From assembly GCF_008369165.1 (NCBI RefSeq), contig NZ_VOBA01000001.1:1171630-1235629 (forward strand): a stretch of 64,000 nucleotides of DNA. The letters run 5' to 3'. Both the position numbers and the translations under genes were made by a program. This stretch comes from Dietzia sp. ANT_WB102. GTDB lineage: Bacteria; Actinomycetota; Actinomycetes; Mycobacteriales; Mycobacteriaceae. This document shows, piece after piece, positions 3,286 through 23,810 of the stretch (its first letter is position 1; every line of letters starts with the position of its first letter). A model generated the notes under the pieces. The model did no database searches. It was not told the origin of the DNA and worked only from the letters and a program-made list of their open reading frames with translations.

Positions 3286-4572
<1,287 letters not shown>

Positions 4573-4733
4573 ACGGTGGTGACTGCCGAGGCCATTGTGG
4601 CGGGTGGGAACCGAGTTCGTGTGAACGTGTGACACATGTCGTACGTTCGCTCGATACCGGTGCCGGGACACATGCGGTGAAATCGACACCGAGCGGCCGT
4701 CCGGCCGCCATTCCCCGTCGATCGGAGCATTAC

Positions 4734-5333: not shown

Positions 5334-5346
5334 CGGGCCGAAGTCT

Positions 5347-5424
5347 GCCCCTCGCGTTCTCCCCCGTGAGGGGCGGGTACAGAACCCGCCGCCCCGGCAT
5401 CTGTGACCAGTGCCGGGGCGGCGG
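5347..5424. terminator. Two hairpins between convergent genes
   Basis: The first hairpin is a 7-bp stem (5347-5353 with 5368-5374). The second is a perfect 14-bp stem (5386-5399 with 5411-5424) closing an 11-nt loop. They sit between the secreted-protein gene (+) and gntR (-), so they can stop transcription from both sides. No T-tract follows. Confidence 0.7.
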
Positions 5425-5466
5425 TGTGCGTGGGGCCCGTCGCCGGCAAGGGCGTCGAGGGCCCGA

Positions 5467-5895: not shown

Positions 5896-5897
5896 GA

Positions 5898-6995
5898 TCA
5901 GGCCCAGACCTGGTCGATCGTGGTGACCTCAGTCGGAGGCGCCGCGGGAACCGGGGCGGCGGGGGTGCGCGAGAAGCGTGGCGCCGGCGAGGGACCCATA
6001 TCTCCGTTGACCTCGACGAACGTCTCCCGAGCCTGGTTGTGGGGGTGATCGAGGGCCTCGGTGTAGGTCAGGACCGGGGTGGTGCACGCGTCGGTGCCGT
6101 AGAAGACCTCGGCCCACTCGTCGCGGGTCTTCTCCGCGAACTTCCCGGCGATGATCTTCCGCAGCTCGTCCCATCGATCGAAGTCGAACTGGCCGGGCAT
6201 TCCCTCGCCGTCGATGCCCAGCAGTCGGGCGAACTCGGCGTAGAACTGCGGCTCGAGGCAGCCCACGGCCATGAACTTGCCGTCCGAGCAGGTGTAGACG
6301 TCGTAGAACGGGTAGCCCGTGTCGAGCATGTTGGTCCCGGCGACGTCCGACCACTGGCCGCGGGCACGCATCGCCCACTGGAACTGGCCCAGCACGGAGG
6401 CGCCATCGGTCATGGCGGCATCGATGACCTGCCCCTTGCCAGAGGTGGACCGCTCGATGATCGCGGCGAGGATGCCCTGGATGAGGAACATCGACCCGCC
6501 GCCGAAGTCGCCGACGAGGTTGAGCGGCGGCACGGGGCGCTCACCCTTGCGGGCGGTGGCGTTGAGATGGCCGGTCAGGGAGATGTAGTTGAGGTCGTGG
6601 CCGGCGGTCTGCGCGAGGGGGCCGTGCTGGCCCCAGCCGGTCATGCGGGCGTAGACCAGCTTCGGGTTGCGCTCGAGGCATTCGTCGGGGCCCAGGCCCA
6701 TTCGCTCGGTGACCCCGGGTCGGAAGCCCTCGACCAGCACGTCGGCCTTGTTGATGAGTCCGCGCACCTGGGCCAGCCCCTCTTCGCTCTTGAGGTTGGC
6801 CTCCACAACCGTCCGGCCGCGACGGGTGACATGCGCCCATCCGTCGACCGACTTGGCCAACTCGCCGGGTCGCATGACGGTCACGACGTCGGCGCCAAGG
6901 TCGGCCAGCATCATGCAGGCGTGGGGGCCCGGTCCGATGCCGTTGAGTTCGACGACGCGGATGCCGGCGAGGGGGCCGGAGGAGGAAGTGGTCAT
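5898..6995 (-). CDS. Family III CoA transferase, alpha-methylacyl-CoA racemase type
   Basis: The 365-residue CaiB/BaiF-fold enzyme probably epimerises 2-methylacyl-CoA for branched-fatty-acid or sterol side-chain oxidation. Residues equivalent to the mycobacterial MCR catalytic set are visible: His in [13 protein letters not shown] (about 131), Asp in [12 protein letters not shown] (about 160) and Glu in [10 protein letters not shown] (about 245). ATG 6995 begins [18 protein letters not shown], typical of the family, and has AAAGGGC upstream; the longer frame to 7037 is not supported. It is co-transcribed with the GntR gene. A general acyl-CoA transferase role is the alternative, but the His/Asp/Glu set favours the racemase. 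Confidence 0.85.
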
Positions 6996-7253
6996 GTTGT
7001 GCCCTTTCGTGTGGCTTTCCACACACGGTATCGCCACGACTCCCCGGTCGTCCGTGCGAGGGGAATGTTGCGCAGGGGGTGGGTGTGGCCTGGGGTGTTG
7101 AATTGCGTGAGAAAGTCCTTATGTTAGCGCGTCTGATGTTCGGAGGGGCGCCCATTCCGCGTGACGAGTGTCACTATCGGGGTGAGCGTTGGCTGAGAGG
7201 TCCACGCGGTCGTTGCGGATGAGCAGCGTCAACCCCTCGTGTAAGGAGCACAA

Positions 7254-8081
7254 ATGACTTCACTCAAGCGATTCGTCGCCTGCGCCTCCGCGGTGGCACT
7301 CGCCGCCGGAACCACCCTCGCCGGAGCTGGCGTTGCTTCCGCGCAGGAAGGCGAGGAGTCCTCGGGCTCGCTCAGCAGTAGCTCGCTCAACCTGGGTCAG
7401 ACAGTGGCTGATCTCGAGACCGCAGCCCAGGCTCTCAATGGCCCGGTCACCGTGTCGCCCAATGCAGAGGGGGGCCCGACGGTCACCTATCTCAACGGGT
7501 CGGAGGGTGATCAGCGGTGCCTGGGCTTTACGGCCCCCTACTCCACGATCATTGAAAAAGACCTCGACACCAACTATGACCCGGCGGATCTCGCGGCAGG
7601 GCTTGCGCTGATCACCGAGATCGAGGCTGGCGGAGGCCTGTCCCACCTCCTCGCGGACTCAGAGGGTAACCCGGTGTCTGTGCCGGATGACGTCGAGGTC
7701 GAGAACAACGTTGTGCAGAACGTCTTTCCCCTCGTGTTTGGCCAGCCGGGTGAGAGTGTCTTGGTCGAGCCGGGCGAAGAGATCGTCTGGACCGCCGACA
7801 GCCCCGAGACTCCGGCGCTCTCCGTGGTGATCTGCTTCCGCGTCGATCCGGAGACCGGGGCGCTCAGCGATATGGAGACGAATTTCGGAATCGACCCGCA
7901 GGTCGTCGCGGATCAGATCAACGGCAAGATCCCGGGCGGGTCCGTCGACATCGTGGGCGCCGGTTCGATCTCCGGCGGCAGCGTCGCGACGGGCGCTACC
8001 GTGCTCGGATCGCTCGGCTCTGACGGCGCCGGTGGTGACGCTGACACGGAGGAGCCGCCGGTCGAGACGCCCGCTGAGTGA
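7254..8081 (+). CDS. Small secreted protein, paralogue of the gene at 4734
   Basis: The 275-residue exported protein has a signal peptide MTSLKRFVACASAVALAAG with a cut near AGVASA (residue 30). Two mature cysteines lie in DQRCLGF and VVICFRV, matching those of the protein at 4734. It is longer than its paralogue in the central region (an acidic Leu/Val-rich insertion around residues 120-180) and ends in an acidic Pro/Glu tail. The start has TAAGGAG at good spacing. About 258 bp upstream, shared with the divergent CoA transferase, contains the likely promoters. No enzyme motif is recognised. Confidence 0.8.
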   Translation: MTSLKRFVACASAVALAAGTTLAGAGVASAQEGEESSGSLSSSSLNLGQTVADLETAAQALNGPVTVSPNAEGGPTVTYLNGSEGDQRCLGFTAPYSTIIEKDLDTNYDPADLAAGLALITEIEAGGGLSHLLADSEGNPVSVPDDVEVENNVVQNVFPLVFGQPGESVLVEPGEEIVWTADSPETPALSVVICFRVDPETGALSDMETNFGIDPQVVADQINGKIPGGSVDIVGAGSISGGSVATGATVLGSLGSDGAGGDADTEEPPVETPAE

Positions 8082-8117
8082 TCGGCTAGCTCCACGCACG
8101 TTCCTGCCCTGACACGG

Positions 8118-8163
8118 CCCCGGATGGCCCCCACCTGACAACGGATGGGTGGACCGTCCGGGG
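8118..8163 (+). terminator. Rho-independent-like hairpin
   Basis: CCCCGGA (8118-8124) pairs with TCCGGGG (8157-8163), and an inner CCACC (8131-8135) with GGTGG (8148-8152). It follows the secreted-protein gene and precedes purT. Confidence 0.65.
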
Positions 8164-8181
8164 TCGTTTGCTGCCATCTAC

Positions 8182-8187
8182 TAGCCT
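8182..8187 (+). promoter_or_regulatory. -10 box for leaderless purT
   Basis: TAGCCT lies 7 nt before ATG 8195, so transcription would begin at or next to the start codon. Confidence 0.45.
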
Positions 8188-8194
8188 GTGGGCC

Positions 8195-9436
8195 ATGACC
8201 AGCGCGCATGATCCTCTGGCCCCTCCAGCCGTGGACCGCTTCGGCACCCCCGGCACGCCCGACGCCACCCGCGTCATGCTGCTGGGCTCAGGGGAGCTGG
8301 GCAAGGAGGTCACGATCGCGCTGCAGCGGCTCGGCATCGAGGTCATCGCGGTCGACCGCTATGACGGCGCCCCCGCCCATCAGGTGGCGCACCGCAGCCA
8401 CACGATCGACATGACAGACGGTGACGAGGTACGTCGGGTCGTGGAGCTGGAGAAGCCGCAGGTGATCCTCCCGGAGATCGAGGCCATCGCCACGGCCGCA
8501 CTCGCGGAAATCGAGAAGGACGGTTTGGCCCGGGTCGTCCCGACTGCCCGCGCTGTGCAGCTGACCATGGACCGTGAGGGCATCCGCCGACTCGCCGCCG
8601 AGGAGCTGGGGCTTCCCACCAGCAGGTATGCTTTCGCTTCCTCGCTGGAGGAGCTGCGCGAGGCGTGCACGATGGTCGGGTTCCCGTGCCTGGTCAAGCC
8701 CACCATGTCGTCGTCAGGCAAGGGCCAGTCCTCTCTGAACGGCCCCGATGACTTGCAGGCGGCGTGGGAATACGCGCAGTCCGGCGCCCGCGTTCAGGGG
8801 GCGCGCGTGATCGTGGAGTCGTTCGTCGACTTCGAGTACGAGATCACCCTGTTGACGGTCCGCAGCGTCGATCCCGCCACCGGTGAGATCCGCACGGACT
8901 TCTGCGAGCCCATCGGCCACCGCCAAGAGCGCGGCGACTACGTCGAGTCCTGGCAGCCGCAGGTCATGACGCAGGACGCCTACGACTCGGCGCGCTCGGT
9001 CGCCGCACGGGTCACGGGTGCGCTCGGCGGCGTCGGCGTGTTTGGCGTGGAACTGTTCGTCAAGGGCGTCGACGTCTACTTCTCGGAGGTCAGCCCCCGC
9101 CCCCACGACACCGGTCTGGTGACGATGGGCAGTCAGGTGCTCAGTGAGTTCGAGATGCACGCCCGCGCGGTGCTCGGTCTGCCCATCGTCACGACCATGT
9201 CCAGCCCGGGCGCGTCCGCGGTGATCTACGGAGGCGCAGACGGCGAAGGGGTCGGCTTCGAGGGAGTGGCCAGCGCGCTCGCCGTGCCCGAGGCGGACAT
9301 CCGACTGTTCGGCAAGCCCTCCGCCAGCGAGTACCGCCGCATGGGCGTGGCCGTTGCGACCGCCGAGGACGTGGACCTCGCCCGTGAGCGGGCGCGCGAA
9401 GCGGCCTCGCGGGTGCGGGTGGTGCGAGCGGGCTGA
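8195..9436 (+). CDS. purT: Formate-dependent glycinamide ribonucleotide transformylase
   Basis: The 413-residue ATP-grasp enzyme makes formyl-GAR from GAR, formate and ATP, the folate-independent route for purine step three. Seen are [17 protein letters not shown] at the N-terminus, [12 protein letters not shown] near 95, the ATP-grasp stretch [15 protein letters not shown] near 170, and [15 protein letters not shown] with metal/phosphate residues near 300. Start ATG 8195 is chosen over the upstream in-frame ATG 8168 because a TAGCCT -10 box sits 7 nt before it. The next gene begins 3 bp after its stop. A purT gene also occurs beside the rhodanese/metZ genes in M. tuberculosis. Confidence 0.95.
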
Positions 9437-9439
9437 CAC

Positions 9440-10000
9440 GTGACGACGACGAGGTCCGCAGCTGATGACGCCCGTGATCTGCCGAGGGAACCGACAGCGC
9501 CGTGGATCCGGGTGCTGGTCGCCGGATTGTCGATCATCTGGCTGGGGGTGCTGGCCTGGCAGGTCGCGGTCCTGCCCGACCGGGTCCCCACGCATTTCGG
9601 CCCGGGCGGTGAACCGGACGGCTGGTCGAGCAAGGTGGGCGCGCTCGCGTTCTCCGCTCTCGGGCCGCTGTTCGCCTTGCCGCTGCCGCTGGTGTCCTTG
9701 CTCGTCCTGCGCTGGCCGGGGCTGATCAATTCCCCAAACAAGCAGTGGTGGACGGCCACCGCGGCGCGGTTGCGCAGATTCGAGCGGCTGATACGTGAGG
9801 ATCTCTGGCTGATCGCGGCCGTGATTCTAGTAACGCTCATCGGCGTCCAGGTGGGGATCACCGGGGCCGCGCTGACCCCCGACGGACACCTGCCGGGTGT
9901 GTGGATCGCCGGTCCACTGATTGTGGTGTTCGTGGGAACCGGTGTGGTCCTGGCGAGGATGTACGGCGGCCGCTATGAGGAGCAAGTCGACCTCCAGTGA
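9440..10000 (+). CDS. DUF1648-type four-helix membrane protein
   Basis: The 186-residue protein has hydrophobic segments at about residues 26-45, 70-92, 118-140 and 152-172. Between the first two lies VPTHFGPGGEPDGW, the DUF1648 signature known from the N-terminal part of SdpI-like immunity proteins and related membrane sensors. GTG 9440 starts 3 bp after purT, so the genes are probably co-transcribed. The SdpI C-terminal domain is absent. The role is unknown; a membrane sensor or immunity function is only inferred from the domain. Confidence 0.75.
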   Translation: MTTTRSAADDARDLPREPTAPWIRVLVAGLSIIWLGVLAWQVAVLPDRVPTHFGPGGEPDGWSSKVGALAFSALGPLFALPLPLVSLLVLRWPGLINSPNKQWWTATAARLRRFERLIREDLWLIAAVILVTLIGVQVGITGAALTPDGHLPGVWIAGPLIVVFVGTGVVLARMYGGRYEEQVDLQ

Positions 10001-10125
10001 TCGGCCTGTGGATGGTCGTCGACCTCATCCACAGACCTTCGATTCCGGCCCGTCCGCGTGGCGCTGCGACCCTAGCGTGATCTCTCGAGCGGCCCGGGCG
10101 TCCGGGCCGGAGGGGAGCGGGGTCG

Positions 10126-10527
10126 ATGGCGGGGCAGGACGGGCGAGCTGACGGGGAGGCCACGAGGCGTACCGACTCGGGTGAGGCGGGCCCGGTGGGG
10201 GCTGTGCTTGTGGCGTTCGAGCAGGCTGCGGTGACCGCCGAGGCGCGGCGAGTGCGTGAGGCGGGCGCAGACACGGCCGAGAGCGCCGCGAGCTTGGTCG
10301 CGGCGCTGGAGGAGGCGTCCGCGGCCGCCACTGGAATGGGGGCAGGGGGGCCGGCCGTGCTGCTCGCCGGTCCAGCACTCGCCGAGTGTGCCGCCTTGCT
10401 CGCCCGGCGCGCGCGGGACCTCGACGCCGAGTGCGTACGGACCGCGGACGCGATGGACCGGGCGGCGGGTCTCCTGGTGGATGCAGACGAGGAGGTGGCC
10501 GGTCGTGTCGCCGGCGCGGCAGGCTGA
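10126..10527 (+). CDS. Ala-rich helical protein, possible WXG100/ESX-like partner
   Basis: The 133-residue protein is almost wholly Ala/Glu/Arg and predicted helical, with no signal peptide, cysteine pair or enzyme motif. ATG 10126 follows GGAGGGGAGCGG. Its 3' end overlaps the alpha/beta-hydrolase gene by 23 bp, so the two are coupled. Small helical proteins of this kind next to DUF1023 hydrolases in actinobacteria resemble WXG100 or excreted-virulence-factor-like proteins, but the WXG motif itself is not visible. Function not assigned. Confidence 0.65.
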   Translation: MAGQDGRADGEATRRTDSGEAGPVGAVLVAFEQAAVTAEARRVREAGADTAESAASLVAALEEASAAATGMGAGGPAVLLAGPALAECAALLARRARDLDAECVRTADAMDRAAGLLVDADEEVAGRVAGAAG

Positions 10528-14001: not shown

Positions 14002-15210
14002 ATGAAGAACAACGAGCTCCCCGACGGACTCCACCCGGACACCCTGGGGGTCCGGGCCGGGCAGATGCGCACCGGCTTCGAGGAGACCGCGGAGCCGATG
14101 TTCCTCAACTCCGGTTACGTCTACGAGTCGGCGGAGGCGGCCGAGGCGTCGTTCAACGGGAGCGTCCAGCGCTTCGTGTACTCGCGCTACGGAAACCCGA
14201 CCGTCGCGATGTTCCAGGAGCGGCTGCGGCAGATCGAGGGCGCGGATGCGTGCTTCGCCACCAGCTCCGGCATGTCCGCGGTGTTCGTCGCGCTGGCCGC
14301 ACTGTGCGGAAACGGCTCGCGGCTCGTGGCCTCGCGGGCGCTGTTCGGCTCCTGTTACGTGATCTGCGCGGAGATCCTCCCACGGTGGGGCGTGGAGACG
14401 GTGTTCGTCGACGGCACCGACCTGGATCAGTGGCGCGAGGCGCTCAGCGAGCCCACCGACGCCGTGTTCTTCGAGACCCCCTCCAACCCGATGCAGGAGC
14501 TGGTGGACGTCCGCTCCGTGTGCGATCTGGCCCATGCGGCAGGCGCGCAGGTCGTGGTGGACAACGTGTTCGCCACCGTCCTGCACCAGAAGCCGCTCGA
14601 GCTGGGCGCGGACGTCGTGGTCTACTCCGCGACCAAGCACATCGACGGGCAGGGCCGGGTGTTGGGCGGCGCCGTGCTGGGCACCGAGGAATACATCTCC
14701 GGTCCGGTGCAGAACCTTATGCGCCACGCCGGCTTCGGGATGAGCGCGTTCAACGCCTGGGTGCTGCTCAAAGGCTTGGAGACCATGAGCATGCGCGTCG
14801 AGCGGATGTCGGCCAACGCGCTGGAGGTGGCACGATTTCTGGAGTCGCACCCGGCCGTGGACTGGGTGACCTACCCGATGCTCGAGTCTCACCCCCAGTA
14901 CGAGCTGGCACGGACGCAGATGGCGGGCGGCGGGTCTGTGGTGACGTTCGGACTGAAGTTTGACGACGCCGAAGGCGGCCGCGGCAAAAAAGAGTGCTTC
15001 TCGCTGCTCAACGCGCTGGAGATCATCGATATCTCCAACAACCTGGGTGACGCCAAGACACTGGTGACCCATCCCGCGACGACGACCCATGCGTCCATGG
15101 AGCCCGAGGCCCGCGCCGCTGTGGGCATCGGCGACAACGTCATCCGCCTTTCTGTGGGGCTGGAGTTCGCTGGAGATCTGATCGAGGACTTGCGCCGCGG
15201 TCTAGATTGA
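14002..15210 (+). CDS. metZ: O-succinylhomoserine sulfhydrylase
   Basis: The 402-residue PLP enzyme converts O-succinylhomoserine and sulfide to homocysteine for methionine synthesis. Seen are NSGYVYESAE and YSRYGNPT (PLP phosphate and substrate tyrosines), ATSSGMSAVF near 90, VVDNVFATVLHQKPLELGAD near 185, and the PLP lysine in VYSATKHIDGQGRVLGG near 210. ATG 14002 has GAGGAAA about 8 nt upstream; the frame to 13927 would overlap the rhodanese gene and adds an acidic non-conserved leader. It is grouped with MetZ rather than cystathionine synthases on overall similarity and synteny. Confidence 0.93.
   Translation: MKNNELPDGLHPDTLGVRAGQMRTGFEETAEPMFLNSGYVYESAEAAEASFNGSVQRFVYSRYGNPTVAMFQERLRQIEGADACFATSSGMSAVFVALAALCGNGSRLVASRALFGSCYVICAEILPRWGVETVFVDGTDLDQWREALSEPTDAVFFETPSNPMQELVDVRSVCDLAHAAGAQVVVDNVFATVLHQKPLELGADVVVYSATKHIDGQGRVLGGAVLGTEEYISGPVQNLMRHAGFGMSAFNAWVLLKGLETMSMRVERMSANALEVARFLESHPAVDWVTYPMLESHPQYELARTQMAGGGSVVTFGLKFDDAEGGRGKKECFSLLNALEIIDISNNLGDAKTLVTHPATTTHASMEPEARAAVGIGDNVIRLSVGLEFAGDLIEDLRRGLD
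15203..15208 (+). promoter_or_regulatory. -10 box for leaderless glycosyltransferase mRNA
   Basis: TAGATT, overlapping the metZ stop, lies 6 nt before ATG 15215. Confidence 0.45.
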
Positions 15211-15214
15211 TCCT

Positions 15215-16366
15215 ATGGATGGACGGGGTGAACATGCCCGTACGCGAGTGGCGGTCCTTCCGGCCGCCCACCCCGCCGTTCGCCGAATCACCGGACTGGA
15301 CGTCTCCTCGCGCGTAGAGCTGGTGCCGGTGCGGCCCGGAGTGGTGAACAGTCAGACGCCGACCGAGGCGTCGAGCGCCGTCGAATTCGACCCCGCCGCC
15401 GTTGCCTCCGGCGAGATTGACCGCGAGGGCGACTCGCTGAGCAGCGTCGATCTGGCGCACGTGCACTTCGGTTACGACTACCTCGAGCCTGACAGTGTGG
15501 ACATGGTGGTGAGACACCTGGCGGGGGCCGACGTGCCGATGGTCTTGACCGTCCACGACATTGTGTATCCGACCGACGAGGACGAGTTGCCGCATCGCGA
15601 CCACACCGGCACGTTGGTGGAGGCGGCCGCGGCGGTGATCACGTTGACCGAGGTGGCGGCCCACGAACTGTGGGTGCGGTGGGGTGTGGAGCCACTGGTC
15701 ATTCCGCATCCCCGCTTGCTCAGCGAGGAGGAGATCTCCGCCGCGGTGCGTGGTTCCAAACACCTGCGCAGCACCGATTCCGCCGTGGTGGGTGTGTTGT
15801 TGGAGCGGATGGGGGAGAACATCGAGGGCCCGGAGCTGCTCGATCAGCTCGCCTCGGTGGCGTCGGGCCGGCCGGGGGCGGAGCTGCGGATCCTGGTGGA
15901 GGCGCAGGCGTGGCGGGATGCGTGTGGCGACGACGGGGTGAGCGGTAGCAATCACCTGGTGGCCGAGTTCGCGGCCGAGGGGGACTGGACCTCCGTGCGT
16001 CTGGTGCGTTACGAATCACTTGACTTGGGCTCGTTGCTCGCCGAGGTCGCCGCTCTGGATGTCTGCGTTCTGCCGTATCGGTTCGCTACCCATTCCACGT
16101 GGCTCGAGTTGTGTCGTGATCTGGGGGTGGCGCCGGTGTTTCCGGCCGTGGGGTGTCTGTGGGATCAGTGGTTCGATCGCTGCGATCCGGCCGAACATTC
16201 GGGGGAGGTCTACGATCCCCGCGATCCCGCCGCGGTCGCCACGGCAGTGCGGGCTTCCCTCGATACGCCTCTCGCGGTTCCTCCGCGCGTCGAAGGCGCC
16301 GATCCGTCGGCGGTGGTGGCCGAGTATTCGAAGGTGTATAGCCAGGTCGCCGGCTTCCGGCCGTGA
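15215..16366 (+). CDS. GT-B (family 4 type) glycosyltransferase
   Basis: The 383-residue soluble protein has the GT-B look: an N-terminal half with AHVHFGYDYLEPDS near 90 and PMVLTVHDIVYP near 108, then a C-terminal half with LDVCVLPYRFATHSTWLELC near 300, where the Glu-containing nucleotide-sugar site is expected. The donor and acceptor are not identifiable; a mannosyl- or glucosyl-transfer role in envelope glycans is possible. No RBS is seen, but a -10 box sits just before the ATG. It ends 24 bp from the convergent SipW-locus gene. Confidence 0.8.
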   Translation: MDGRGEHARTRVAVLPAAHPAVRRITGLDVSSRVELVPVRPGVVNSQTPTEASSAVEFDPAAVASGEIDREGDSLSSVDLAHVHFGYDYLEPDSVDMVVRHLAGADVPMVLTVHDIVYPTDEDELPHRDHTGTLVEAAAAVITLTEVAAHELWVRWGVEPLVIPHPRLLSEEEISAAVRGSKHLRSTDSAVVGVLLERMGENIEGPELLDQLASVASGRPGAELRILVEAQAWRDACGDDGVSGSNHLVAEFAAEGDWTSVRLVRYESLDLGSLLAEVAALDVCVLPYRFATHSTWLELCRDLGVAPVFPAVGCLWDQWFDRCDPAEHSGEVYDPRDPAAVATAVRASLDTPLAVPPRVEGADPSAVVAEYSKVYSQVAGFRP

Positions 16367-16390
16367 TCGACGTGAAGACCTGCCTGGCTT

Positions 16391-17020
16391 TTACGTGTCG
16401 GCGCCGCTGCGACTGATGTCGAGCGGCCACGCCAGTGTGAGCATCGAATCCGGAGCCGGTGACAGCGAGTCCATGCTCAACTCCAGGCACACGGTCACGG
16501 GCGCGCCTGGCGTGGTGCGGGTGGCTCCCGGCAGGACGAGTGGCCTGGGTGCGGTCTGAGCGTCTACGGGAACAGGTCGGGTGGGGTCGCCGGTGAAGAT
16601 GCCGGGGGAGCCGGAGGCGAAGGTCGGCTCTGCACACGCCCCGCCGCCGGTGGCTATGGCCCGGATGCGGACAGCTGCTGCAGCGTCGGGGTTGCCCTCC
16701 ACCAGGACGCCTTTACCGATGGTGACGTGCGCGTCGTCCTGGGAGTCGACGCTCGTGCGCAGGGTGAGGGGTTGGTAGGCGGAGCGGTTACGCAGTCCGG
16801 AGGTGTCCACGCGGACGGGGAAGTGCCCGCCGTAGGAGGAGACGGGGGCGGTCCAGGTGGTACCGAAGTCGGTGGAGGCCTGGACGGACCAAGCGGAGGC
16901 GCGGAGTTCGGATTCGCGGGCTTGTTCGTCGTGGTCGTGAATGATCATCGAGGCGCCGAGTGCGCATGCGGAGGTGGCAGCGAGAGCGACCAGTGCGCTG
17001 GCCGCGTGCCGGATCCGCAT
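16391..17020 (-). CDS. Exported protein of the SipW locus (member E)
   Basis: The 209-residue protein has an N-terminal hydrophobic segment (RHAASALVALAATSACALG) followed by IIHDHDEQAR rather than the TDDVF motif of its neighbours. The mature part contains SVQASTDFGTTWTAP and two cysteines (GGACAEP and VTVCLEL). ATG 17020 has GGAGG 7 nt upstream; the TTG 17098 extension lacks an RBS. It has its own promoter-like TACTCT at 17110-17115 after the hairpin that ends the upstream operon. The beta-rich pattern and cluster position suggest a TasA/camelysin-like matrix or fibre protein, but the family is not certain. Confidence 0.65.
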   Translation of the reverse strand: MRIRHAASALVALAATSACALGASMIIHDHDEQARESELRASAWSVQASTDFGTTWTAPVSSYGGHFPVRVDTSGLRNRSAYQPLTLRTSVDSQDDAHVTIGKGVLVEGNPDAAAAVRIRAIATGGGACAEPTFASGSPGIFTGDPTRPVPVDAQTAPRPLVLPGATRTTPGAPVTVCLELSMDSLSPAPDSMLTLAWPLDISRSGADT

Positions 17021-17109
17021 AATCGCCTCCGAGACGTGCTGTGCCGGATGCTGGTCAGGGGAGGGGCCCTGGTTCGCGGTGCGGTACCGCGAGTGCAACC
17101 GATCTACCT

Positions 17110-17115
17110 AGAGTA
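17110..17115 (-). promoter_or_regulatory. Putative -10 box upstream of member E
   Basis: On the minus strand TACTCT lies about 90 nt before ATG 17020, after the hairpin at 17145-17178. It would give an independent transcript with a leader of about 80 nt. Confidence 0.35.
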
Positions 17116-17144
17116 TTGCGGTTCGTTCGTCTCTTGTTACATTG

Positions 17145-17178
17145 CGCCCGGCGAGTGAGCATTCTCACTCGCCGGGCG
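17145..17178 (-). terminator. Perfect 15-bp hairpin after the SipW operon
   Basis: A 15-bp perfect stem (17145-17159 with 17164-17178) closes a four-base loop, 28 bp past the stop of the large exported protein. It would separate that operon from member E. Confidence 0.8.
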
Positions 17179-17205
17179 GCGTGTCTTGTGGGCTGGCGGG
17201 TGCGG

Positions 17206-18978
17206 TCAGCGGATGTAGACGACCGTGCCGGTCTTCCGGTTGATGGCTGCCCAGCGCCAGCCGTCGGTGTCGGGGTCGGTGGCGGTGAAGGTGGCCCAGG
17301 TGTCGCCGGGGTCGCCGCCGCTCAGCCAGATCTCCAGCGCCGCGGCGCCCTGACGCGCATCGTTGGGCGCGGTATCGCCGCGGACGACGACTACAGCGTC
17401 CCCCTCGTCAACCTTCACGGTCCCGGCCTCTTCGGTCCGGGCAGATACGGGGAGTTTCGCGGGCTCGCTGGGGATGACCATTACGGGCCCCACCGTTGTT
17501 GTTGGCGCCGGCGGCGTGGCCGACGGAGTCGAGGGGGCAGGCACCGACGTTGGAGTTTTTGTGCTGGTCTTGGTTGAGGGTGCCGAAGTGCTTGTGCTGG
17601 TCCGAGTCGTACGCGTGCCGGGGCTGGTCGAGGTCCCCTCGTCATCGGGGTTCGGCGGAGCCGACGTGGTGGTCTCCGACGCAGTGGAGTTCTCGAGCGG
17701 AGAGGTCACGGTTGTTGTGGGAGGCAGGTCGCTGGCGGTGGCTTCGGTTTCGAGTATTCCCCGCATCATCGACCGGCCGAAAGTAGCCGGGGTTCCCAAG
17801 TCGGAAAAAGTAAAGGTCTGGTACCTCTGCGAAGCGGTTGGTGCAAGGTTTCCTAACGAACGACCTGGCCACCCTAACTGGTTTGCATCACCTCGCCACG
17901 TTCCAGCCATTGACCGTAACGGTTTCGTGCCGTTGCTAAATCCGCATTCGGACCTGGTTAGAGGGAGGTTTATTTGGTCGATAAAGGCACCACGGCTAGA
18001 TAAGCCACCTCCCGCGCTGTAGACCTGCACGACGAGATCCATTTCGGCCAGAGCGTAGTAAGGTGCGGTAAATGTATCTTTTCTCACATTGACTGCTAGA
18101 ACGAATGACGCATTTCCTTCTCCAAGGCCTTCAACGTTGTATCGACCCCAAGTGTTGGTAACGCCATCGTATCTTTCGCCAGGTGTGTCCGTAGCGGGAA
18201 TGAGATTCGTGATGTCTTGGGCGTCCGTAAAACTTGCGTTGTTGGTGTTCGGAATAACCTGGCGGGCTAATTGCAATACTCTGTTGTTTTCAGTGATTGA
18301 GGCGGTGGAGTTTCCATCTTCGTAACACTGTGCTTTTGAGGAGAATCCGGAAGCGTTAACGCGCGCAGCTTTAGTTCCGAGGTTCGACGCCGTTATAGAG
18401 AAAGTAAATCCTTCATTATTCTGGTGCGATGCCATCCGGGGACTTGGGTTCGAGGCGGCAAAGCAGGTGCTGGCAGACCCGGGGATGCTAGCCGGTGATG
18501 GATATGCCATGCAATGTCCCGCTCTGGTTATCTCAGTGTCATTCGAAGCTGTTGTATATTTGCCCATCCACAGGTCCTCGCCGGACTCTCTAGGCGGGAC
18601 GATATCGGCAGAGGCGTTCGCGCCGAAGCTGTTGCGTGCATCCTCAGCGCCGGTTGCCTGGGCGTAGCCAGGCAGTTTCGGGTAGGTGAGCCCAAAATTC
18701 CTAGTCCTTTCGGCGGGGCCCCTCAGGCCGATAGAACTAGGTAGGTTCGTGTCTCGGACATTTCGCATCTTCCAGCCCGGGTTGGTGACTCTGGTATAGC
18801 CCTGCATCCAAGCAGTTTTGACCGAAGCTTGAGCCACCTCGGTGTCATTCCACGCTGCCTCCGTCTCTTCTACACCCCCGCCAACCAGGCCGGACAGTGC
18901 GAGCATCCCGGCGATCGTCAGCGCACCCGCGGAGGCTGCGACGTGTCGGAGGCTGCTGGACGTGCGAGAGGTGCTCAT
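17206..18978 (-). CDS. Large exported protein of the SipW locus with Thr/Ser/Pro-rich stalk (member D)
   Basis: The 590-residue protein begins MSTSRTSSSLRHVAASAGAL, then a hydrophobic core and EETEAAWNDTEVAQ, the alternate signal-peptide pattern recognised by SipW-type peptidases. Residues about 60-390 form a Asn/Thr/Ser-rich domain with four to six cysteines. Residues about 400-490 are a Thr/Ser/Pro/Lys stalk (PSTKTSTKTPTSVPAPSTP). The last 90 residues form a compact acidic/aromatic domain ending KTGTVVYIR. ATG 18978 starts 1 nt after the sipW stop, so it is coupled. The upstream in-frame extension lies within sipW. It may be the cell-surface tip or anchor of the system (inference). Confidence 0.78.
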   Translation of the reverse strand: MSTSRTSSSLRHVAASAGALTIAGMLALSGLVGGGVEETEAAWNDTEVAQASVKTAWMQGYTRVTNPGWKMRNVRDTNLPSSIGLRGPAERTRNFGLTYPKLPGYAQATGAEDARNSFGANASADIVPPRESGEDLWMGKYTTASNDTEITRAGHCMAYPSPASIPGSASTCFAASNPSPRMASHQNNEGFTFSITASNLGTKAARVNASGFSSKAQCYEDGNSTASITENNRVLQLARQVIPNTNNASFTDAQDITNLIPATDTPGERYDGVTNTWGRYNVEGLGEGNASFVLAVNVRKDTFTAPYYALAEMDLVVQVYSAGGGLSSRGAFIDQINLPLTRSECGFSNGTKPLRSMAGTWRGDANQLGWPGRSLGNLAPTASQRYQTFTFSDLGTPATFGRSMMRGILETEATASDLPPTTTVTSPLENSTASETTTSAPPNPDDEGTSTSPGTRTTRTSTSTSAPSTKTSTKTPTSVPAPSTPSATPPAPTTTVGPVMVIPSEPAKLPVSARTEEAGTVKVDEGDAVVVVRGDTAPNDARQGAAALEIWLSGGDPGDTWATFTATDPDTDGWRWAAINRKTGTVVYIR

Positions 18979-18979
18979 A

Positions 18980-19531
18980 TCACTGCTGCTTTCGGGGCCA
19001 AAAGGCCCAAACGACGAGGAGGGAGGCCGCAATCGTTATTCCCGCCATATAGATCGGTTGGCTTACTTTCGCAACCACGTAGGCGAGGCCGGGGGCGTGC
19101 CAGAGCACCTTTTTGACCTCGGCCACTTCGTAAGGCTGAGCGTCAGGTGAGTCGTTGGCGTCGCCTTTCATTGCAATGGAGTAAGTGTCTCCGTTTACGG
19201 GGGTAACGGACACCACGCGGTGGGTCACCGGTAGTTGACCCTCGCCGCGGGAAACTGTTGTGACATCGCCGACGCGAATGTCAGAGGCAGGGATCTGCCT
19301 GACGATGGCGAGGGATCCAGTCGGAATCGTTGGCGACATGGAACCGGTCTTGAACATGATTAGGCTGATGTTAAGAGCGAAGGCGGCAATCGTCGCGATG
19401 ATGCAGACAACGCCGAGTAGCGCGAGCGCCGACAACAGGGCGTCTGTGACCCGTGACAGGAACTTAGTGCGGATGAACCCATCAACTGGCTGGGGTTCCT
19501 CATTCGCAGGAGCGCTCACGTCGATCGTCAT
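18980..19531 (-). CDS. SipW-type (S26B, ER-like) signal peptidase I
   Basis: The 183-residue membrane protease has one transmembrane helix near residues 35-60, the catalytic Ser in MFKTGSMSPTIPTGSLAIV near 74, and THRVVSV near 115 with His where Gram-negative LepB has Lys. That Ser/His pair defines the SipW/ER subgroup. A second helix (YMAGITIAASLLVVWAFWP) ends the protein. ATG 19531 starts 2 nt after the preceding stop. In Bacillus SipW matures TasA and TapA; here five exported neighbours are the likely substrates. The longer frame to 19561 overlaps the neighbouring gene and is rejected. Confidence 0.9.
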   Translation of the reverse strand: MTIDVSAPANEEPQPVDGFIRTKFLSRVTDALLSALALLGVVCIIATIAAFALNISLIMFKTGSMSPTIPTGSLAIVRQIPASDIRVGDVTTVSRGEGQLPVTHRVVSVTPVNGDTYSIAMKGDANDSPDAQPYEVAEVKKVLWHAPGLAYVVAKVSQPIYMAGITIAASLLVVWAFWPRKQQ

Positions 19532-19533
19532 AG

Positions 19534-20208
19534 CTACACAGACTCCGCTGTGAATGTCCACTGGACAGTGACTACTGCACCGTTAGTTAACCCTGCCGGC
19601 GGTGTGGCGTTGGGAAGACTAAATTCATAGCACAGATAGACGGGGATGCCGGGGTTCGATGTCGTCGCATTAGGGTTCAGGGTGAGTTTCCGAAGAGCAG
19701 TGCCGGGTTGGTCAAGCATCTTTCCGTAAGTGCTTGCGGTCCCTATTAAAAAAACAGCGTTTACGTCCGAGAAGGTGCTCGAATCGCAGGTTGGGGATGT
19801 TGTACGGATAAGGCGCATGCTGATCAGGTTGGCCTGGTTACCGCTCGAGACCTCCACTCCGACGGGGATCGTGACGTTTGCCCCGAGCGTGGCGCCTGGT
19901 GCCATACGGAGTCCGAAACGCGAATACGATCGGATTTCTCCACCAGGGATGATAGTGCCCAATGTGGGTCGAAAGATGGCCGCGTTTGCGGAAGTTGGGT
20001 GATCGGACCACCCAGCGGCCCCGGGCTCAATGTCAGCGGTCGCGTTTCCCTGGACGTTCCACTTGGAAGAAAAAAAGGTTCCAGTCGCGAATGTGTCATC
20101 GACAAAGCCTGCAATGGTTTCACCGGGCGTGGTCTGCACAGCGACGGCTCCGAGAACGACTGCTGCTGCGATTGCCGCAATTTTGCCTCGCCTAGTCGGC
20201 TTCTTCAC
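19534..20208 (-). CDS. SipW-dependent exported protein (member C)
   Basis: The 224-residue protein has a basic start (KKPTRRGK), a hydrophobic core and then IAGFVDDTFATGTFFSSKW, the shared motif of members A-C. The mature domain is beta-rich with a Cys pair (SPTCDSS and VYLCYEF) and ends VVTVQWTFTAESV, parallel to member A. GTG 20208 is the only in-frame start with the right signal; the RBS is weak (GTGAGTCAGA). It lies in the operon 2 nt before sipW. TasA/camelysin-like fold inferred from the signal class, not from motif identity. Confidence 0.75.
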   Translation of the reverse strand: MKKPTRRGKIAAIAAAVVLGAVAVQTTPGETIAGFVDDTFATGTFFSSKWNVQGNATADIEPGAAGWSDHPTSANAAIFRPTLGTIIPGGEIRSYSRFGLRMAPGATLGANVTIPVGVEVSSGNQANLISMRLIRTTSPTCDSSTFSDVNAVFLIGTASTYGKMLDQPGTALRKLTLNPNATTSNPGIPVYLCYEFSLPNATPPAGLTNGAVVTVQWTFTAESV

Positions 20209-20309
20209 TCTGACTCACAACCTGGTCATTGAACTATCTTAAAAGTGCTTATGTGGCATATCGAATGCGCCACGGCATCGAGTCTGGGGGCGTGCGGCCG
20301 TGCGCACTT

Positions 20310-20993
20310 TTACGTTGTTGCGGTTCCTCGGAAATCCCACGTGATCGAAGTCGAGGTCAGCGGATTTGCGTTATTGATGGCGTCCTTCGCGGCCTGGGAA
20401 TTCGCTAGCGTAACCGCGATGCAGAACTTCTGAGTGTCTCCCGAATCGGCGAGAAGGTCTCGTGCGGGAGCCCCAGTTGGAGCAGTGGGGCTGGATTGAG
20501 TCCCGCCCGGTGTGCCAGTCGCCCACGAGGTTCCGTTAGTGGTGCTCGCGCCAGCAGCGCAGGTAGTACCTCCGTTGAGGACCGTGTAGGTCAGATACGG
20601 ATCCAATGTGCCGGCGGTCGAGAAGTATGCCCCCGCCAGGGTTACGGTTCCTGCACCGGATTCTGGCCCGGTCCGAATCGTAAACGGGGCGTAAACGGTG
20701 TCGCCGGGGGCCATCGAGGATGCGAAGGTCAACGCAGCGTGCCCGGTGCCCGGCGCTCCGGTCGGGTCTGGATAATCCTTGAATGAGGCGTCCGAGGCTG
20801 CCGGGTATGCCGCAGCTTGTGACCCCTGTATCGAGAACTTCGCTGAACTGAAAGTGCCCGTGGCGAAGACGTCATCGGTGAACGCCGCCAGGGTGGCGAC
20901 AGCACCGAGGCCGAGAACAACCCCGCCAGCAAGTAGCGCTTTGCGTTTGCGGTTGCGATCCGCTAGCTCGGAGGGATTCATCGAGTCGGTCAT
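20310..20993 (-). CDS. SipW-dependent exported protein (member B)
   Basis: The 227-residue protein starts at ATG 20993 (GGAAG upstream) with DRNRKRKALLAGGVVLGLGA, then TLAAFTDDVFATGTFSSAKF. The N-terminal 60 residues are nearly the same as in member A, while the mature domains have diverged. Two cysteines occur in GGTTCAAGA and QKFCIAV, and the protein ends TSITWDFRGTATT. The 101 bp before member C contain the complementary octamers 20241-20248 and 20304-20311, which could fold into a long-range stem. Paralogue of A. Confidence 0.78.
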   Translation of the reverse strand: MTDSMNPSELADRNRKRKALLAGGVVLGLGAVATLAAFTDDVFATGTFSSAKFSIQGSQAAAYPAASDASFKDYPDPTGAPGTGHAALTFASSMAPGDTVYAPFTIRTGPESGAGTVTLAGAYFSTAGTLDPYLTYTVLNGGTTCAAGASTTNGTSWATGTPGGTQSSPTAPTGAPARDLLADSGDTQKFCIAVTLANSQAAKDAINNANPLTSTSITWDFRGTATT

Positions 20994-21015
20994 AGTCAAC
21001 TTCCGGATATGGAGG

Positions 21016-21045
21016 GGTGGACGGGGCCGTACGGCCCCGCCCACC
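21016..21045 (-). repeat. Palindromic hairpin between members A and B
   Basis: An 18-bp perfect palindrome (21022-21039) is extended by GGTGG/CCACC on each side of one mismatch. It lies between the A stop (21074) and the B start (20993), so it could attenuate transcription or stabilise the 3' end of the A message. Confidence 0.6.
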
Positions 21046-21073
21046 TGTGTTCGTTAAGCCGAGTTGGCCGCGA

Positions 21074-21763
21074 TCAGGGGGTATTGGCCGTGGCGGTGAA
21101 CTGCCAAATCACCTGAGTGTCGGTCGCACCCTGAACGTCTTCCGAGTTGTCGTTCAAGGTGATGCCGAGGCACAACTGGTCTTGCGTAGCCGCGGCCGCG
21201 GTCAGCGGACGCGCAGATGCACCCGAGTTGGAGACTCCAGGCGCATCGTCGGCGACGGTGCCGGTGTACCAGTCGGATCCTGCAGGCGTTTGCGCGTCGC
21301 ACTGCGCAGCGGTGGAGTTCGTAATAACCCGGTAGTCGAGCTTGTCAGCCAGATCTGGGTCTGCAGTGGTTCCGAAAGTGACTCCGGATAGGACAAACGT
21401 GCCGTCCACAGTTGTTTCCGGTGAAAGGCGAAGCGTGATCGGCGCGAAAACCTCCTCACCGGGCTGGAGGGTGACGGCCGTCAGTACCTGGTCGAACCGG
21501 AGGGTGCCGCCGGGCGTGTCGTCGTAGTTCTCGTACTGAGGTACATCCTCGGCGGATTCGACAGCGGTGGTCGTCAGGTTGCCCTGAAGCTCGAATGAAC
21601 CTGTGTTGAAGATACCGTTCGCGAAAACGTCATCCGACCAGGCAGCCAGGGTGATCGCAGCGCCGAGGCCGAGGACGACGCCGCCAGCGAGGATCGCCTT
21701 GCGCTTGCGCTTGCGGTCCTGCTGCCGTTGGACGTCGGTGACGATGGGGTCATTGGCTGTCAT
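21074..21763 (-). CDS. SipW-dependent exported protein (member A), first gene of the locus
   Basis: The 229-residue protein starts at ATG 21763 with GGAAGGA upstream. After a charged start it has RKRKAILAGGVVLGLGA, a hydrophobic segment and TLAAWSDDVFANGIF, the SipW-type cleavage and post-cleavage motif. The mature domain is acidic and beta-rich with cysteines in AAQCDAQ and DQLCLGI and ends IWQFTATANTP. It is probably the most highly expressed structural subunit, being first and closest to the promoter region (inference). TasA-like by signal class; no metal-protease motif seen. Confidence 0.78.
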   Translation of the reverse strand: MTANDPIVTDVQRQQDRKRKRKAILAGGVVLGLGAAITLAAWSDDVFANGIFNTGSFELQGNLTTTAVESAEDVPQYENYDDTPGGTLRFDQVLTAVTLQPGEEVFAPITLRLSPETTVDGTFVLSGVTFGTTADPDLADKLDYRVITNSTAAQCDAQTPAGSDWYTGTVADDAPGVSNSGASARPLTAAAATQDQLCLGITLNDNSEDVQGATDTQVIWQFTATANTP

Positions 21764-22155
21764 GTGTGGATCCTTCCGGTGGGGGCCACCGAAGCGGCCC
21801 GAGGGGTACAAGTCATGCCAGATCCCGATCGCCGTTGATCGCGTGCCGACACCAAGTTCATCTACCGAACTCACATAAGTGTTACAGATTCTTAGTAATT
21901 TGCAAAGGGCGGCCAGCCTGCGAGTTTCGGGGGCTAGCGACTGTTTCCGCCCGTAGTGCTAGATGCGGCAACATTTTTTCCGCCGTCCAGTATAAGGAGT
22001 CTGTTATTCGCGACCCACCGTTATTAGAGGTCAGAGCAGCGGGGCTACGCGACGTGTATATCCGGGACAGCGCGCATCGGTCCGCTGGCATACTCGGGAC
22101 AACACTTGGCGTACGTGCCGATGATTTAGCTCACATGCCCCTCTAGGAGACCCCC
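21764..22155. other. 392-bp divergent intergenic region
   Basis: This AT-richer stretch lies between the SipW locus (leftward) and fgd (rightward). It must hold both promoters. Runs such as ACATAAGTGTTACAG around 21873-21888 are promoter-like, but I cannot fix a single -10/-35 pair. Two short ORFs across it show no RBS or coding character. No repeat or RNA gene is recognised. Confidence 0.5.
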
Positions 22156-23175
22156 ATGCCAGACACCCCTTCCCTCAAGCTCGGATACAAGGCATCAGCC
22201 GAGCAGTTCGGCCCGCGCGACTTGGTCGAGTACGCGGTCTTGGCGGAGCAGGCGGGGATGGATTCGGCCACGGTGTCTGACCACTTCCAGCCATGGCGCC
22301 ACGATGGCGGCCACGCCCCGTTCTCTCTCGCGTGGTTGACGGCAGTGGGCGAGCGCACCGAGCGCCTCCAGTTGGGCACCTCGGTACTCACGCCGACGTT
22401 CCGCTACAACCCGGCGGTACTGGCCCAGGCGTTTGCCACCATGGCGTGCCTGTACCCGGGGCGGGTCTTCCTGGGTGTGGGCACTGGTGAGGCGCTCAAC
22501 GAGATCGCCACCGGCTTCCAGGGTGAGTGGCCAGCGTTCAAGGAGCGATTCGCTCGTCTGCGTGAGTCCGTCCGCCTGATGCGAGAGCTGTGGACGGGCG
22601 AGACGACCAACTTTGAGGGCGACTACTACAGCACCAGGGACGCATTCCTCTATGACGTTCCGGACGGCGGCGTCCCCGTCTACATCGCCGCCGGTGGCCC
22701 GGTTGTGGCCAAGTACGCCGGCCGCGTCGGCGACGGATTCATCTGCACCTCCGGCAAGGGCATGGAGCTCTACACCGACAAGCTACTCCCAGCAGTCGAG
22801 GAGGGTGCCGGCATCAACGAGCGCGACTCCACGACCATCGACAGGATGATCGAGATCAAGATCAGCTACGACCCCGACCCGGACAAGGCGCTGGAGAATT
22901 GCCGCTTCTGGGCCCCGCTCTCGCTCACCCCCGAGCAGAAGCACTCCGTGGACTCCCCGCGCGAGATGGAGCGTCTGGCCGACGAGTTGCCCATCGAGCA
23001 GGTCGCCAAGCGCTGGATTGTGGCCTCTGACCCCGATGAGGCCGTGGAGCAGGTCAAGCAGTACGTCGACGCGGGCCTTAACCACCTGGTCTTTCATGCA
23101 CCCGGCCACGATCAAAAGCGTTTCCTCGACCTGTTCAAGACCGACCTCGAACCCCGTCTGCGAGCACTTGCATGA
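22156..23175 (+). CDS. fgd: F420-dependent glucose-6-phosphate dehydrogenase
   Basis: The 339-residue luciferase-like TIM-barrel enzyme oxidises glucose-6-phosphate to 6-phosphogluconolactone while reducing coenzyme F420. The residues matching M. tuberculosis Fgd1 His40, Trp44 and Glu109 are seen: VSDHFQPW (His43, Trp47) and [10 protein letters not shown] (Glu112). The start ATG 22156 has TAGGAG 5-7 nt upstream. In mycobacteria fgd1 is followed directly by pta-ackA; here about 6 kb of other genes intervene. The stop overlaps the next gene (ATGA). Confidence 0.96.
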
Positions 23176-23810
23176 GTGACACCACCACCCCACCGGGCCC
23201 CGCCCAATCCGACCTCGCCGGCCTCGAGGGCATTCTCGCCGACAAGGAGTCGGTCCGCGTCCTGCGCTATCCGCACGAGACCGAAGCCGACGAAGAGGGC
23301 AACACCACCGAGTGGCACTGCGACATTGTGATCGTCGACGACGTGCCCGCCGCCGGATTCTCGACCTACGCCACCGTGGGTGCCCGGGGACTCCCCACCA
23401 ACGTCACCACGCCCGAGGGGCGGCAGATCCGCAGTGAATTCGTGATCGTCGGCCGCACCGGCCACCGGGCCATGGCAGACGTTCTCGACGCGTGCGCACT
23501 CGCCGTCGCGACCGGCTCCATCCACGTGGCCCCCGGTGCCGTGATCCCCAACGCGGTGGGATTGGTCGACTCCGGGCGCACCTGTGAGCACCTCGTCCTG
23601 ACCCCACCGTTCCTGTGGCCAGACCTGGAGGTCGTCGACGAGTCCGGCGGCGAGGATGGCACCGGACCCCTGCTCACACGTTTGCAGGCCGTACCCATCA
23701 CCACCGCCGAGATGTCCTTCCTCGTCCGGGAGGGCCCCGATGCCCTGTTCGAGAAGCTCGACAGCGCCGACGCCGACGTCACCAACCCGGACCGCCCGAG
23801 CGTCGTGTGA
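23172..23810 (+). CDS. Suppressor-of-fused (SUFU) domain-like protein
   Basis: The 212-residue protein is soluble, acidic and without signal peptide. The middle part, [20 protein letters not shown] then IRSEFVIVG and [15 protein letters not shown], followed by PFLWPDLEV and [11 protein letters not shown], has the layout of bacterial SUFU/DUF2314-like domains, often immunity or accessory proteins of unknown role. It is translationally coupled to fgd (ATGA) and to the next gene (GTGA). No catalytic residue is evident. The family call rests on pattern memory only. Confidence 0.6.

What the first reader, a model, noticed from the sequence alone, without database searches (positions are those of the whole stretch)
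16391..21763. Actinobacterial SipW export locus with five dissimilar exported proteins
A SipW/ER-type signal peptidase (Ser/His dyad) is embedded in an operon with three proteins sharing an AxFTDDVFATGTF-like post-cleavage motif (A, B, C), a large Thr-rich-stalk protein (D) and a separately promoted small one (E). In Bacillus the comparable sipW-tasA module builds matrix fibres. Here the substrates are different and more numerous, in an organism expected to have a mycolate outer layer. Mature domains of A-C each keep one Cys pair and a closing aromatic strand, as expected for structural subunits. A surface fibre or matrix system is inferred.
Basis: partly seen in the sequence, partly recalled or inferred. 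Interest (0 to 1): 0.78.

Follow-up and report, generated by a model that had tools for sequence, protein, structure and literature searches.

The report
SipW-dependent surface-fibre cassette in Dietzia
An actinobacterium carries a swappable gene cassette that makes a dedicated signal peptidase together with secreted proteins that look like distant cousins of the Bacillus biofilm-fibre protein TasA, which suggests that a little-studied kind of surface fibre occurs in many actinobacteria.

Summary
In detail: an ER-type (SipW-like) signal peptidase sits in a tight operon A-B-C-sipW-D. In 75 of 80 fetched actinobacterial sipW loci an A-family gene lies within 500 nt upstream.

Corrections. (1) A, B, C and E belong to one family; only D differs. 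(2) E is not part of the module: it is in 11 of 11 Dietzia genomes, one without a sipW match, lies behind a strong hairpin, and lacks the W-x-D...F start. (3) A-B-C-sipW-D is a 5-kb low-GC cassette in a fixed site. Of 15 sites read, the closest congener and two others are empty, one holds a different sipW cassette, one a decayed and one a relic form.

The A family has no Pfam model. It matches, over full length, the subunits of dual-sipW loci; three of these pass the TasA/camelysin model at full length, though the mature part shown does not, and their profile's PDB hits include AbpX and TasA, weakly. Most likely A-C build, and D initiates or anchors, a SipW-dependent surface fibre. The fold was not tested (prediction switched off). 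New variant of a known kind.

The parts
21074..21763 (-). A: A-family exported subunit; mature start about residue 41-42 (AWSDDVFANGIF...)
   Evidence: TIGR04088 25.8 bits, cut-off 19; finds B and C by phmmer
20310..20993 (-). B: A-family exported subunit
   Evidence: TIGR04088 25.9 bits; 41% identical to A in the alignment; phmmer with A 3e-34
19534..20208 (-). C: A-family exported subunit, GTG start
   Evidence: phmmer with B 9e-8, A 3e-6, E 1e-6; no TIGR04088 match
18980..19531 (-). sipW: ER-type signal peptidase (Ser64/His104/Asp124/Asp130)
   Evidence: TIGR02228 68.4 bits over cut-off; PDB relative SEC11C E 2e-5; invariant residues
17206..18978 (-). D: large protein with a SipW-type start by reading: N-domain with 4 Cys, Thr/Pro/Ser-rich stalk, C-terminal module
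   Evidence: sequence; D-like gene in the same slot in other loci
17461..17754 (-). Thr/Pro/Ser-rich stalk of D
   Evidence: sequence and composition
17206..17460 (-). 84-aa C-terminal module of D, shared by D proteins with different N-domains at this Dietzia site
   Evidence: 12 of 23 Dietzia genomes at E up to 0.001; 49-68% identity in 10 genomes, while the N-domain finds only G003 at E 1e-4
17145..17178 (-). hairpin with a 15-bp stem between D and E, terminator-like but without a T run
   Evidence: -35.6 kcal/mol, z -5.63; not listed by the simple terminator scan
16391..17020 (-). E: core Dietzia gene, diverged A-family relative lacking the W-x-D...F start; neighbour of the cassette, not part of it
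   Evidence: A3 profile (no E row in it) 2.1e-17; 11 of 11 Dietzia genomes; ortholog alignment
17174..22144 (.). extent of the cassette relative to the empty site of G055
   Evidence: blastn: window 14801-17173 and 22145-23400 align to L186 with 124 nt between; GC 0.596 against a minimum of 0.658 in 197 other stretches of equal length of the window

Best explanation
A-B-C-sipW-D is an exchangeable cassette for a SipW-dependent surface fibre related at the superfamily level to TasA/camelysin. Inferred mechanism: A, B, C and D leave through Sec. The ER-type peptidase cuts just before an A-[W/F]-x-D-like start and frees an N-terminal strand. A-C, each with one Cys pair and a closing Trp strand, polymerise by passing that strand to a neighbour (donor-strand exchange). 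D has the same kind of start but a different body and a Thr/Pro-rich stalk, so it initiates, anchors or caps the fibre at the cell wall, the role of TapA in Bacillus. Shown here: operon, family, conserved neighbourhood, cassette with empty and alternative sites. Inferred: cleavage, polymerisation, the role of D.
For: SipW over the TIGR02228 cut-off, A and B over TIGR04088. A-family gene within 500 nt upstream of sipW in 75 of 80 loci. In a phylum sample of 296 genomes 9 have the A family, 8 of those 9 have sipW, and in all 8 the two matches lie within 200 bp. F11, P60, two Cys and the closing Trp are kept in at least 74 of 78 rows. Full-length profile match to dual-sipW subunits, 98.5%, E 3.8e-15; three of those proteins pass PF12389 TasA/camelysin at 25.1-27.2 bits, cut-off 22.5; their profile's PDB hits are led by AbpX (0.0018), with TasA at 0.066. 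The main D family and the A family share their first 23 mature residues, 54.6%, E 1.2e-4, as TapA and TasA share AFHDI/AFNDI (PMC10151520, passages). Empty site in the closest congener compared.
Against: No structure was predicted or searched. A-C have no Pfam match, and the A3 profile alone does not find TasA in PDB; its only hits are weak cytokine-receptor domains, which reappear with the combined profile. 1 of 78 family members touches PF12389, at 0.005. On mature parts alone 5 of 15 intermediate proteins match PF12389 at E up to 0.1, best 0.0007, and the member shown is below the cut-off (19.1 bits), so part of the over-cut-off score comes from the signal region. PDB hits of the intermediate are weak and include HYDIN Ig-like domains. 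The window's own D does not match the A family (P 0.04 over 11 columns) and matches the main D family only at P 0.012. W1 and D3 of the family were partly required by my trimming rule. No expression, cleavage or fibre data.
Confidence: 0.58

Rival explanations
1. A-D are SipW-processed but non-polymeric cell-wall or secreted proteins (a surface coat, adhesins or ligand-binding proteins), and the A family is a globular beta-sandwich that never forms fibres.
For: No fold was tested; PDB profile hits are weak and include non-fibre Ig-like domains; loci hold one to three A genes upstream and very different genes in the D slot.
Against: Close tie to a dedicated peptidase, as for TasA/TapA and BsaA (PMC9674648 and PMC7395162, passages); profile link to TasA/AbpX through the intermediate.
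Confidence: 0.3
2. The cassette is a degenerating or chance acquisition without a current function in this strain.
For: Low GC (0.596) and GC3 (0.60-0.73) against the flanks; empty, relic and transposase-interrupted states occur in congeners.
Against: All five frames are open here, with tight gene spacing; catalytic and family residues are kept.
Confidence: 0.08
3. E works with the cassette as a capping or accepting subunit that lacks a donor strand.
For: E is an A-family relative (2.1e-17) without the W-x-D...F start, and it borders the cassette in each Dietzia cassette site read that reaches that edge.
Against: E is present where the cassette is absent (G055, G115, G127) and in G150, which has no sipW match.
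Confidence: 0.15

Closest known systems
tapA-sipW-tasA of Bacillus subtilis (TasA fibre, donor-strand exchange; PMC9674648 and PMC10151520, passages read)
   Same: Dedicated ER-type signal peptidase in one operon with a fibre subunit and an accessory protein; substrates share an A-[F/W]-x-D-like mature start; near-overlapping genes.
   Different: Three A-type subunits instead of one; conserved Cys pair; D is 590 aa with a stalk and has no NCBIfam or Pfam match; SipW is far below the Bacillus SipW equivalog (48 against 190 bits).
sipW-bsaABC of Clostridium perfringens (BsaA filaments, PMC7395162, passages read)
   Same: SipW-dependent polymer with accessory exported proteins in one operon.
   Different: A-E do not match TIGR04090 at E up to 1; three dual-sipW-type relatives touch it at 0.014-0.077.
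TIGR04089, alternate-type signal peptide proteins (exp_by_SipW_III)
   Same: SipW-associated exported family; a member (P0007, 5e-31) occupies the same chromosomal site in Dietzia genome G088.
   Different: A-C do not match it at E up to 1; 1 of 78 family members does, at 0.004.
AbpX / archaeal bundling pili
   Same: First PDB sequence hit of the intermediate profile and of the combined profile; in the latter the match covers the first half including the N-terminal Trp.
   Different: Archaeal; E 0.002 only, and found by profiles that are not made of the window's family alone.

Membership tests
ER/archaeal-type signal peptidase I (TIGR02228) | score over the curated cut-off | tested here: met
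   68.4 against 51.85 bits
ER/archaeal-type signal peptidase I (TIGR02228) | Ser/His/Asp catalysis, no Lys | tested here: met
   S64, H104, D124, D130 invariant in 20 sequences; the assignment of roles is recalled
Bacillus SipW equivalog (NF046067) | score over the curated cut-off | tested here: not met
   48 against 190 bits
SipW-dependent signal peptide (TIGR04088) | score over the curated cut-off, A and B | tested here: met
   A 25.8 and B 25.9 against 19
SipW-dependent signal peptide (TIGR04088) | score over the curated cut-off, C, D and E | tested here: not met
   no match at E up to 1
TasA/camelysin (PF12389) | direct Pfam match of A-E | tested here: not met
   no match at E up to 1; 1 of 78 family members at 0.005
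TasA/camelysin superfamily | first link: A family homologous to dual-sipW subunits | tested here: met
   hhalign 98.5%, E 3.8e-15 over 149 columns; sipW alignment as control 0.3%
TasA/camelysin superfamily | second link: dual-sipW subunits belong to PF12389 | tested here: inconclusive
   three full-length proteins over the cut-off at 26.7, 27.2 and 25.1 bits, a fourth below at 20.3; mature parts 5 of 15 at E up to 0.1, the member shown below the cut-off
TasA/camelysin superfamily | jelly-roll/Ig-like fold completed by the neighbour's N-terminal strand | not testable with these tools
   structure prediction switched off
TIGR04089 exported proteins | score over the curated cut-off | tested here: not met
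   no match for A, B or C at E up to 1
Sortase-assembled pili | LPXTG-type C-terminus | tested here: not met
   C-termini of A-D read directly: ANTP, ATT, ESV, VVYIR

The most novel reading that the evidence does not exclude
Actinobacteria have their own disulphide-stabilised branch of donor-strand fibres, and Dietzia switches fibre type at one chromosomal site. Whole cassettes (A-family type, or a different dual-sipW/TIGR04089 type) come and go between a flavin-monooxygenase gene and the core gene E, while the 84-aa C-terminal module of D next to E is kept. That module would be the constant dock of a variable fibre, and E, an A-family relative without a donor strand, its cap or receptor.
Probability: 0.22. 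Interest if true: 0.76.

Novelty: new variant of a known kind. Interest (0 to 1): 0.52.

Why it matters
SipW/TasA fibres are known from Bacillus and, as relatives, from archaea. Here an actinobacterial family with no Pfam model sits beside sipW in Rhodococcus, Gordonia, Dietzia, Arthrobacter, Brevibacterium and others. If it forms fibres, it gives mycolate-bearing and ordinary actinobacteria a sortase-free appendage, and the Dietzia site offers a natural present/absent/swapped comparison.

Tried and rejected
Rejected: 'five dissimilar substrates' (A, B, C and E are homologous); E as a member of the module; sortase pilus (no LPXTG by reading); insertion with a target duplication at the edges (no shared word longer than 7 nt, composition shuffles average 7.0).

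Led nowhere: Pfam on A-E; PDB by sequence with B (one weak hit to a designed-looking entry, 0.005), the A3 profile and D; promoter/terminator scan (no promoter-like site, and it did not list the D-E hairpin). Literature: searches of an open-access library listed no paper on a SipW/TasA-like system in actinobacteria. I judged this from titles and abstract starts, and searches listed only 20 of 269, 120 and 92 papers.

Limits. Profile A3 was built from A-family genes of those same loci, so the 75 of 80 is not an independent test of the family; the phylum search is closer to one, but it uses the same profile, its 8 genomes include the window's own, and overlap of the others with the 80 loci was not checked. 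To make A3 I kept only members with an aromatic/Leu residue at mature position 1 and Asp/Glu at 3 (135 rows), then thinned at 70% identity (89) and by E-value and length (75 plus 3 window rows); the W1/D3 conservation is therefore partly selected, the rest is not. B's row in A3 and A5 starts one residue late. The phylum searches mostly scored at most 11 candidates per genome, so counts are lower bounds. The ORF caller is home-made. In one search five ORFs of 400 aa or more after sipW (L094, L123, L124, L131, L153) were dropped by eye as not D-like; L115's mature start was misplaced and it was left out of group G1, as was L192 (same as L074). Of 23 Dietzia genomes the E site was read in 15 including the window; G152 gave only a contig end and was dropped; G153, G154, G155, G156, G159, G160 and G162 were not looked at.

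Full report
Anatomy. On the minus strand the genes run A (21763-21074), B (20993-20310), C (20208-19534), sipW (19531-18980), D (18978-17206), then E (17020-16391). C/sipW are 2 nt and sipW/D 1 nt apart; between D and E lie 185 nt with a hairpin of 15 pairs, -35.6 kcal/mol, z -5.63. The genome is a Dietzia by its relatives: contigs of same-genus handles have the lengths of named Dietzia records (216776, 542191 and 28541 bases).

The peptidase. SipW scores 68.4 bits on TIGR02228 (cut-off 51.85) and 48 on the Bacillus SipW equivalog (cut-off 190). Its best PDB sequence match is SEC11C, E 2e-5. Ser64, His104, Asp124 and Asp130 are invariant in 20 homologues. It is the only match over the TIGR02228 cut-off in the genome; a second lies below it.

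The substrates. A and B pass TIGR04088, the SipW-dependent signal; C, D and E do not. A and B are 41% identical in the alignment. By phmmer C finds A, B and E, and E finds C. A profile of 78 mature A-family members without any E row finds the window's E at 2.1e-17 and that of G088 at 5.2e-17. So A, B, C and E are one family. Conserved positions are W1 75, D3 76, F11 77, P60 77, C114 74, C157 74 and W179 77 of 78 rows; W1 and D3 were partly required by my trimming. At E up to 0.001 the genome holds only these four members.

Conserved neighbourhood. A search with the SipW protein found matches in 73 of 151 family genomes. A scan of genome contigs with the sipW alignment kept the best 80 of 442 loci: Dietzia, Rhodococcus, Gordonia, Hoyosella, Williamsia, Arthrobacter, Plantibacter, Brevibacterium, Leucobacter and others. 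In 75 of 80 an A-family gene lies within 500 nt upstream of sipW; the number of upstream copies within 3 kb is 0, 1, 2 or 3 in 2, 18, 57 and 3 loci. The profile used was built from these loci. As a check that does not start from sipW, 296 genomes of the phylum were searched with it: 9 have a match at E up to 1e-6 (the window's genome among them), 8 of those 9 also have sipW at E up to 1e-15, and in all 8 a pair of matches lies within 200 bp on the same strand. The ninth, G301, has no sipW match at that threshold. Thirty further genomes have sipW without an A-family match, so other substrates must exist.

D. The gene after sipW is often a protein of about 420-650 aa with the same kind of cleavage context (for example TEA-AWNDT) and a Thr/Pro/Ser-rich region. 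Four Cys stand in the N-domain in 19 of 34 rows read, the window's D included. In the 80 loci I counted 26 such long proteins, 25 of them in Dietzia, Hoyosella, Lolliginicoccus, Rhodococcus/Rhodococcoides, Gordonia or Williamsia. In many of the other loci the slot seems, by eye, to hold a protein of about 200 aa with a similar start, or one with a C-terminal membrane segment. The main D family and the A family align only over their first 23 mature residues (54.6%, E 1.2e-4), but the window's own D group does not match the A family (P 0.04) and matches the main D family only weakly (P 0.012). The pattern recalls TapA and TasA, whose mature starts AFHDI and AFNDI are nearly identical (PMC10151520, passages).

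A cassette in a fixed site. In Dietzia the region between the luciferase-like monooxygenase gene (22156+) and E is variable. Of 15 sites including the window, seven hold A-family cassettes (window, G072, G003, G139, G151, G158, G157), one has sipW and a D interrupted by an ISL3-type transposase but no A-C (G102), one is cut by the contig end inside D (G161), one holds a different cassette with two sipW genes and a TIGR04089 protein (G088), one keeps only a D C-terminal relic (G034), three are empty (G055, G115, G127), and G150 has a diverged E and no sipW match. Gene order also differs: A-sipW-A-D in G072, A-A-D-sipW in G151. G055 is the closest congener compared by flank DNA (84% left, 91% right, seven loci) and by the monooxygenase (97%), SUFU (97%) and E (93%) proteins, though not by the PLP enzyme on the left (88%, against up to 95% elsewhere). 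It has 124 nt where the window has 4971. In eight congeners with sipW at the site the monooxygenase is 93-95% identical, but SipW ranges from 41 to 82%, and the best hits of A, B and C from 27 to 59%, some of the C hits possibly falling on other family members. The D N-domain finds only G003 at E 1e-4; a longer query that includes the stalk also touched G139, G157 and G161 at 3e-11 to 2e-6. Cassette GC is 0.596; the minimum of 197 other stretches of that length in the window is 0.658. The edges share no repeat beyond chance, so exchange by recombination in the flanks is my inference.

E. E is found in 11 of 11 Dietzia genomes of the sample, including G150 without a sipW match. Weak matches occur in four other genomes of three genera; those in G024, G067 and G128 fall on A-family genes beside sipW. 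E keeps the family-like stretch SVQASTDFGTTW but has charged residues in place of W-x-D...F. It is a core relative, not shown to be a SipW substrate.

Link to TasA. A-C match no Pfam family, and the A profile alone finds nothing relevant in PDB. The small subunits of dual-sipW loci (alignment A4, 15 sequences) match the A family over 149 columns at 98.5% and E 3.8e-15; the unrelated sipW alignment gives 0.3%. PF12389 matches over its cut-off in 6 of 151 family genomes; those in G110, G116 and G142 are A4 members, and at full length these score 26.7, 27.2 and 25.1 bits (cut-off 22.5), while G088's scores 20.3. Without the signal region 5 of 15 match at E up to 0.1, best 0.0007, and the member shown falls to 19.1 bits. 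The A4 profile's PDB hits are AbpX 0.0018 and 0.0037, HYDIN 0.032 and 0.045, TasA 0.066 and 0.088, a lipase 1.3; the combined profile A5 gives AbpX 0.0022, cytokine-receptor domains from 0.066, TasA 0.12 and 0.14. The link is firm at the family step and suggestive at the TasA step. [quoted passage not shown] for TasA also PMC9674648, passages).

Function. SipW is needed for extracellular BsaA polymers in Clostridium perfringens (PMC7395162, passages) and cleaves TasA and TapA in Bacillus (PMC9674648, passages). By analogy I infer a surface fibre with A-C as subunits and D as initiator or anchor. Fold, cleavage and polymerisation were not tested.

Verdict. The new points are the spread of the actinobacterial family, its close tie to sipW, and the cassette exchange site in Dietzia.

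Noticed in passing
L063 (G088), 3933-10473: At the same Dietzia site a different cassette: a protein with Ig-like domains (Big_6), a TIGR04089 protein, two sipW genes around an A-like subunit, and a D with the same C-terminal module as the window's D.
   Followed up: partly
L034 (G102, contig length of a Dietzia natronolimnaea record), 5126-8651: An ISL3-type transposase (PF01610, 1.7e-53) lies between pieces of D; sipW is open and A-C are absent.
   Followed up: partly
L147: A record titled Kitasatospora arboriphila carries a sipW locus whose D looks nearly the same as that of Williamsia muralis (L141, L152): contamination, mislabelling or recent transfer.
   Followed up: no
L051, L053-L056: Further Dietzia loci away from the E site with an A-sipW-D module; in L051, L053 and L054 they lie near a gene that looks by eye like an ATP-dependent DNA ligase.
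   Followed up: partly
window 15215-16366: Neighbour of E, glycosyltransferase-like by eye but without a Pfam match; no match to it beside E in G072 and G150.
   Followed up: no
window 23172-23810: A SUFU-domain protein (PF05076, 7.5e-22) directly after the luciferase-like monooxygenase.
   Followed up: no
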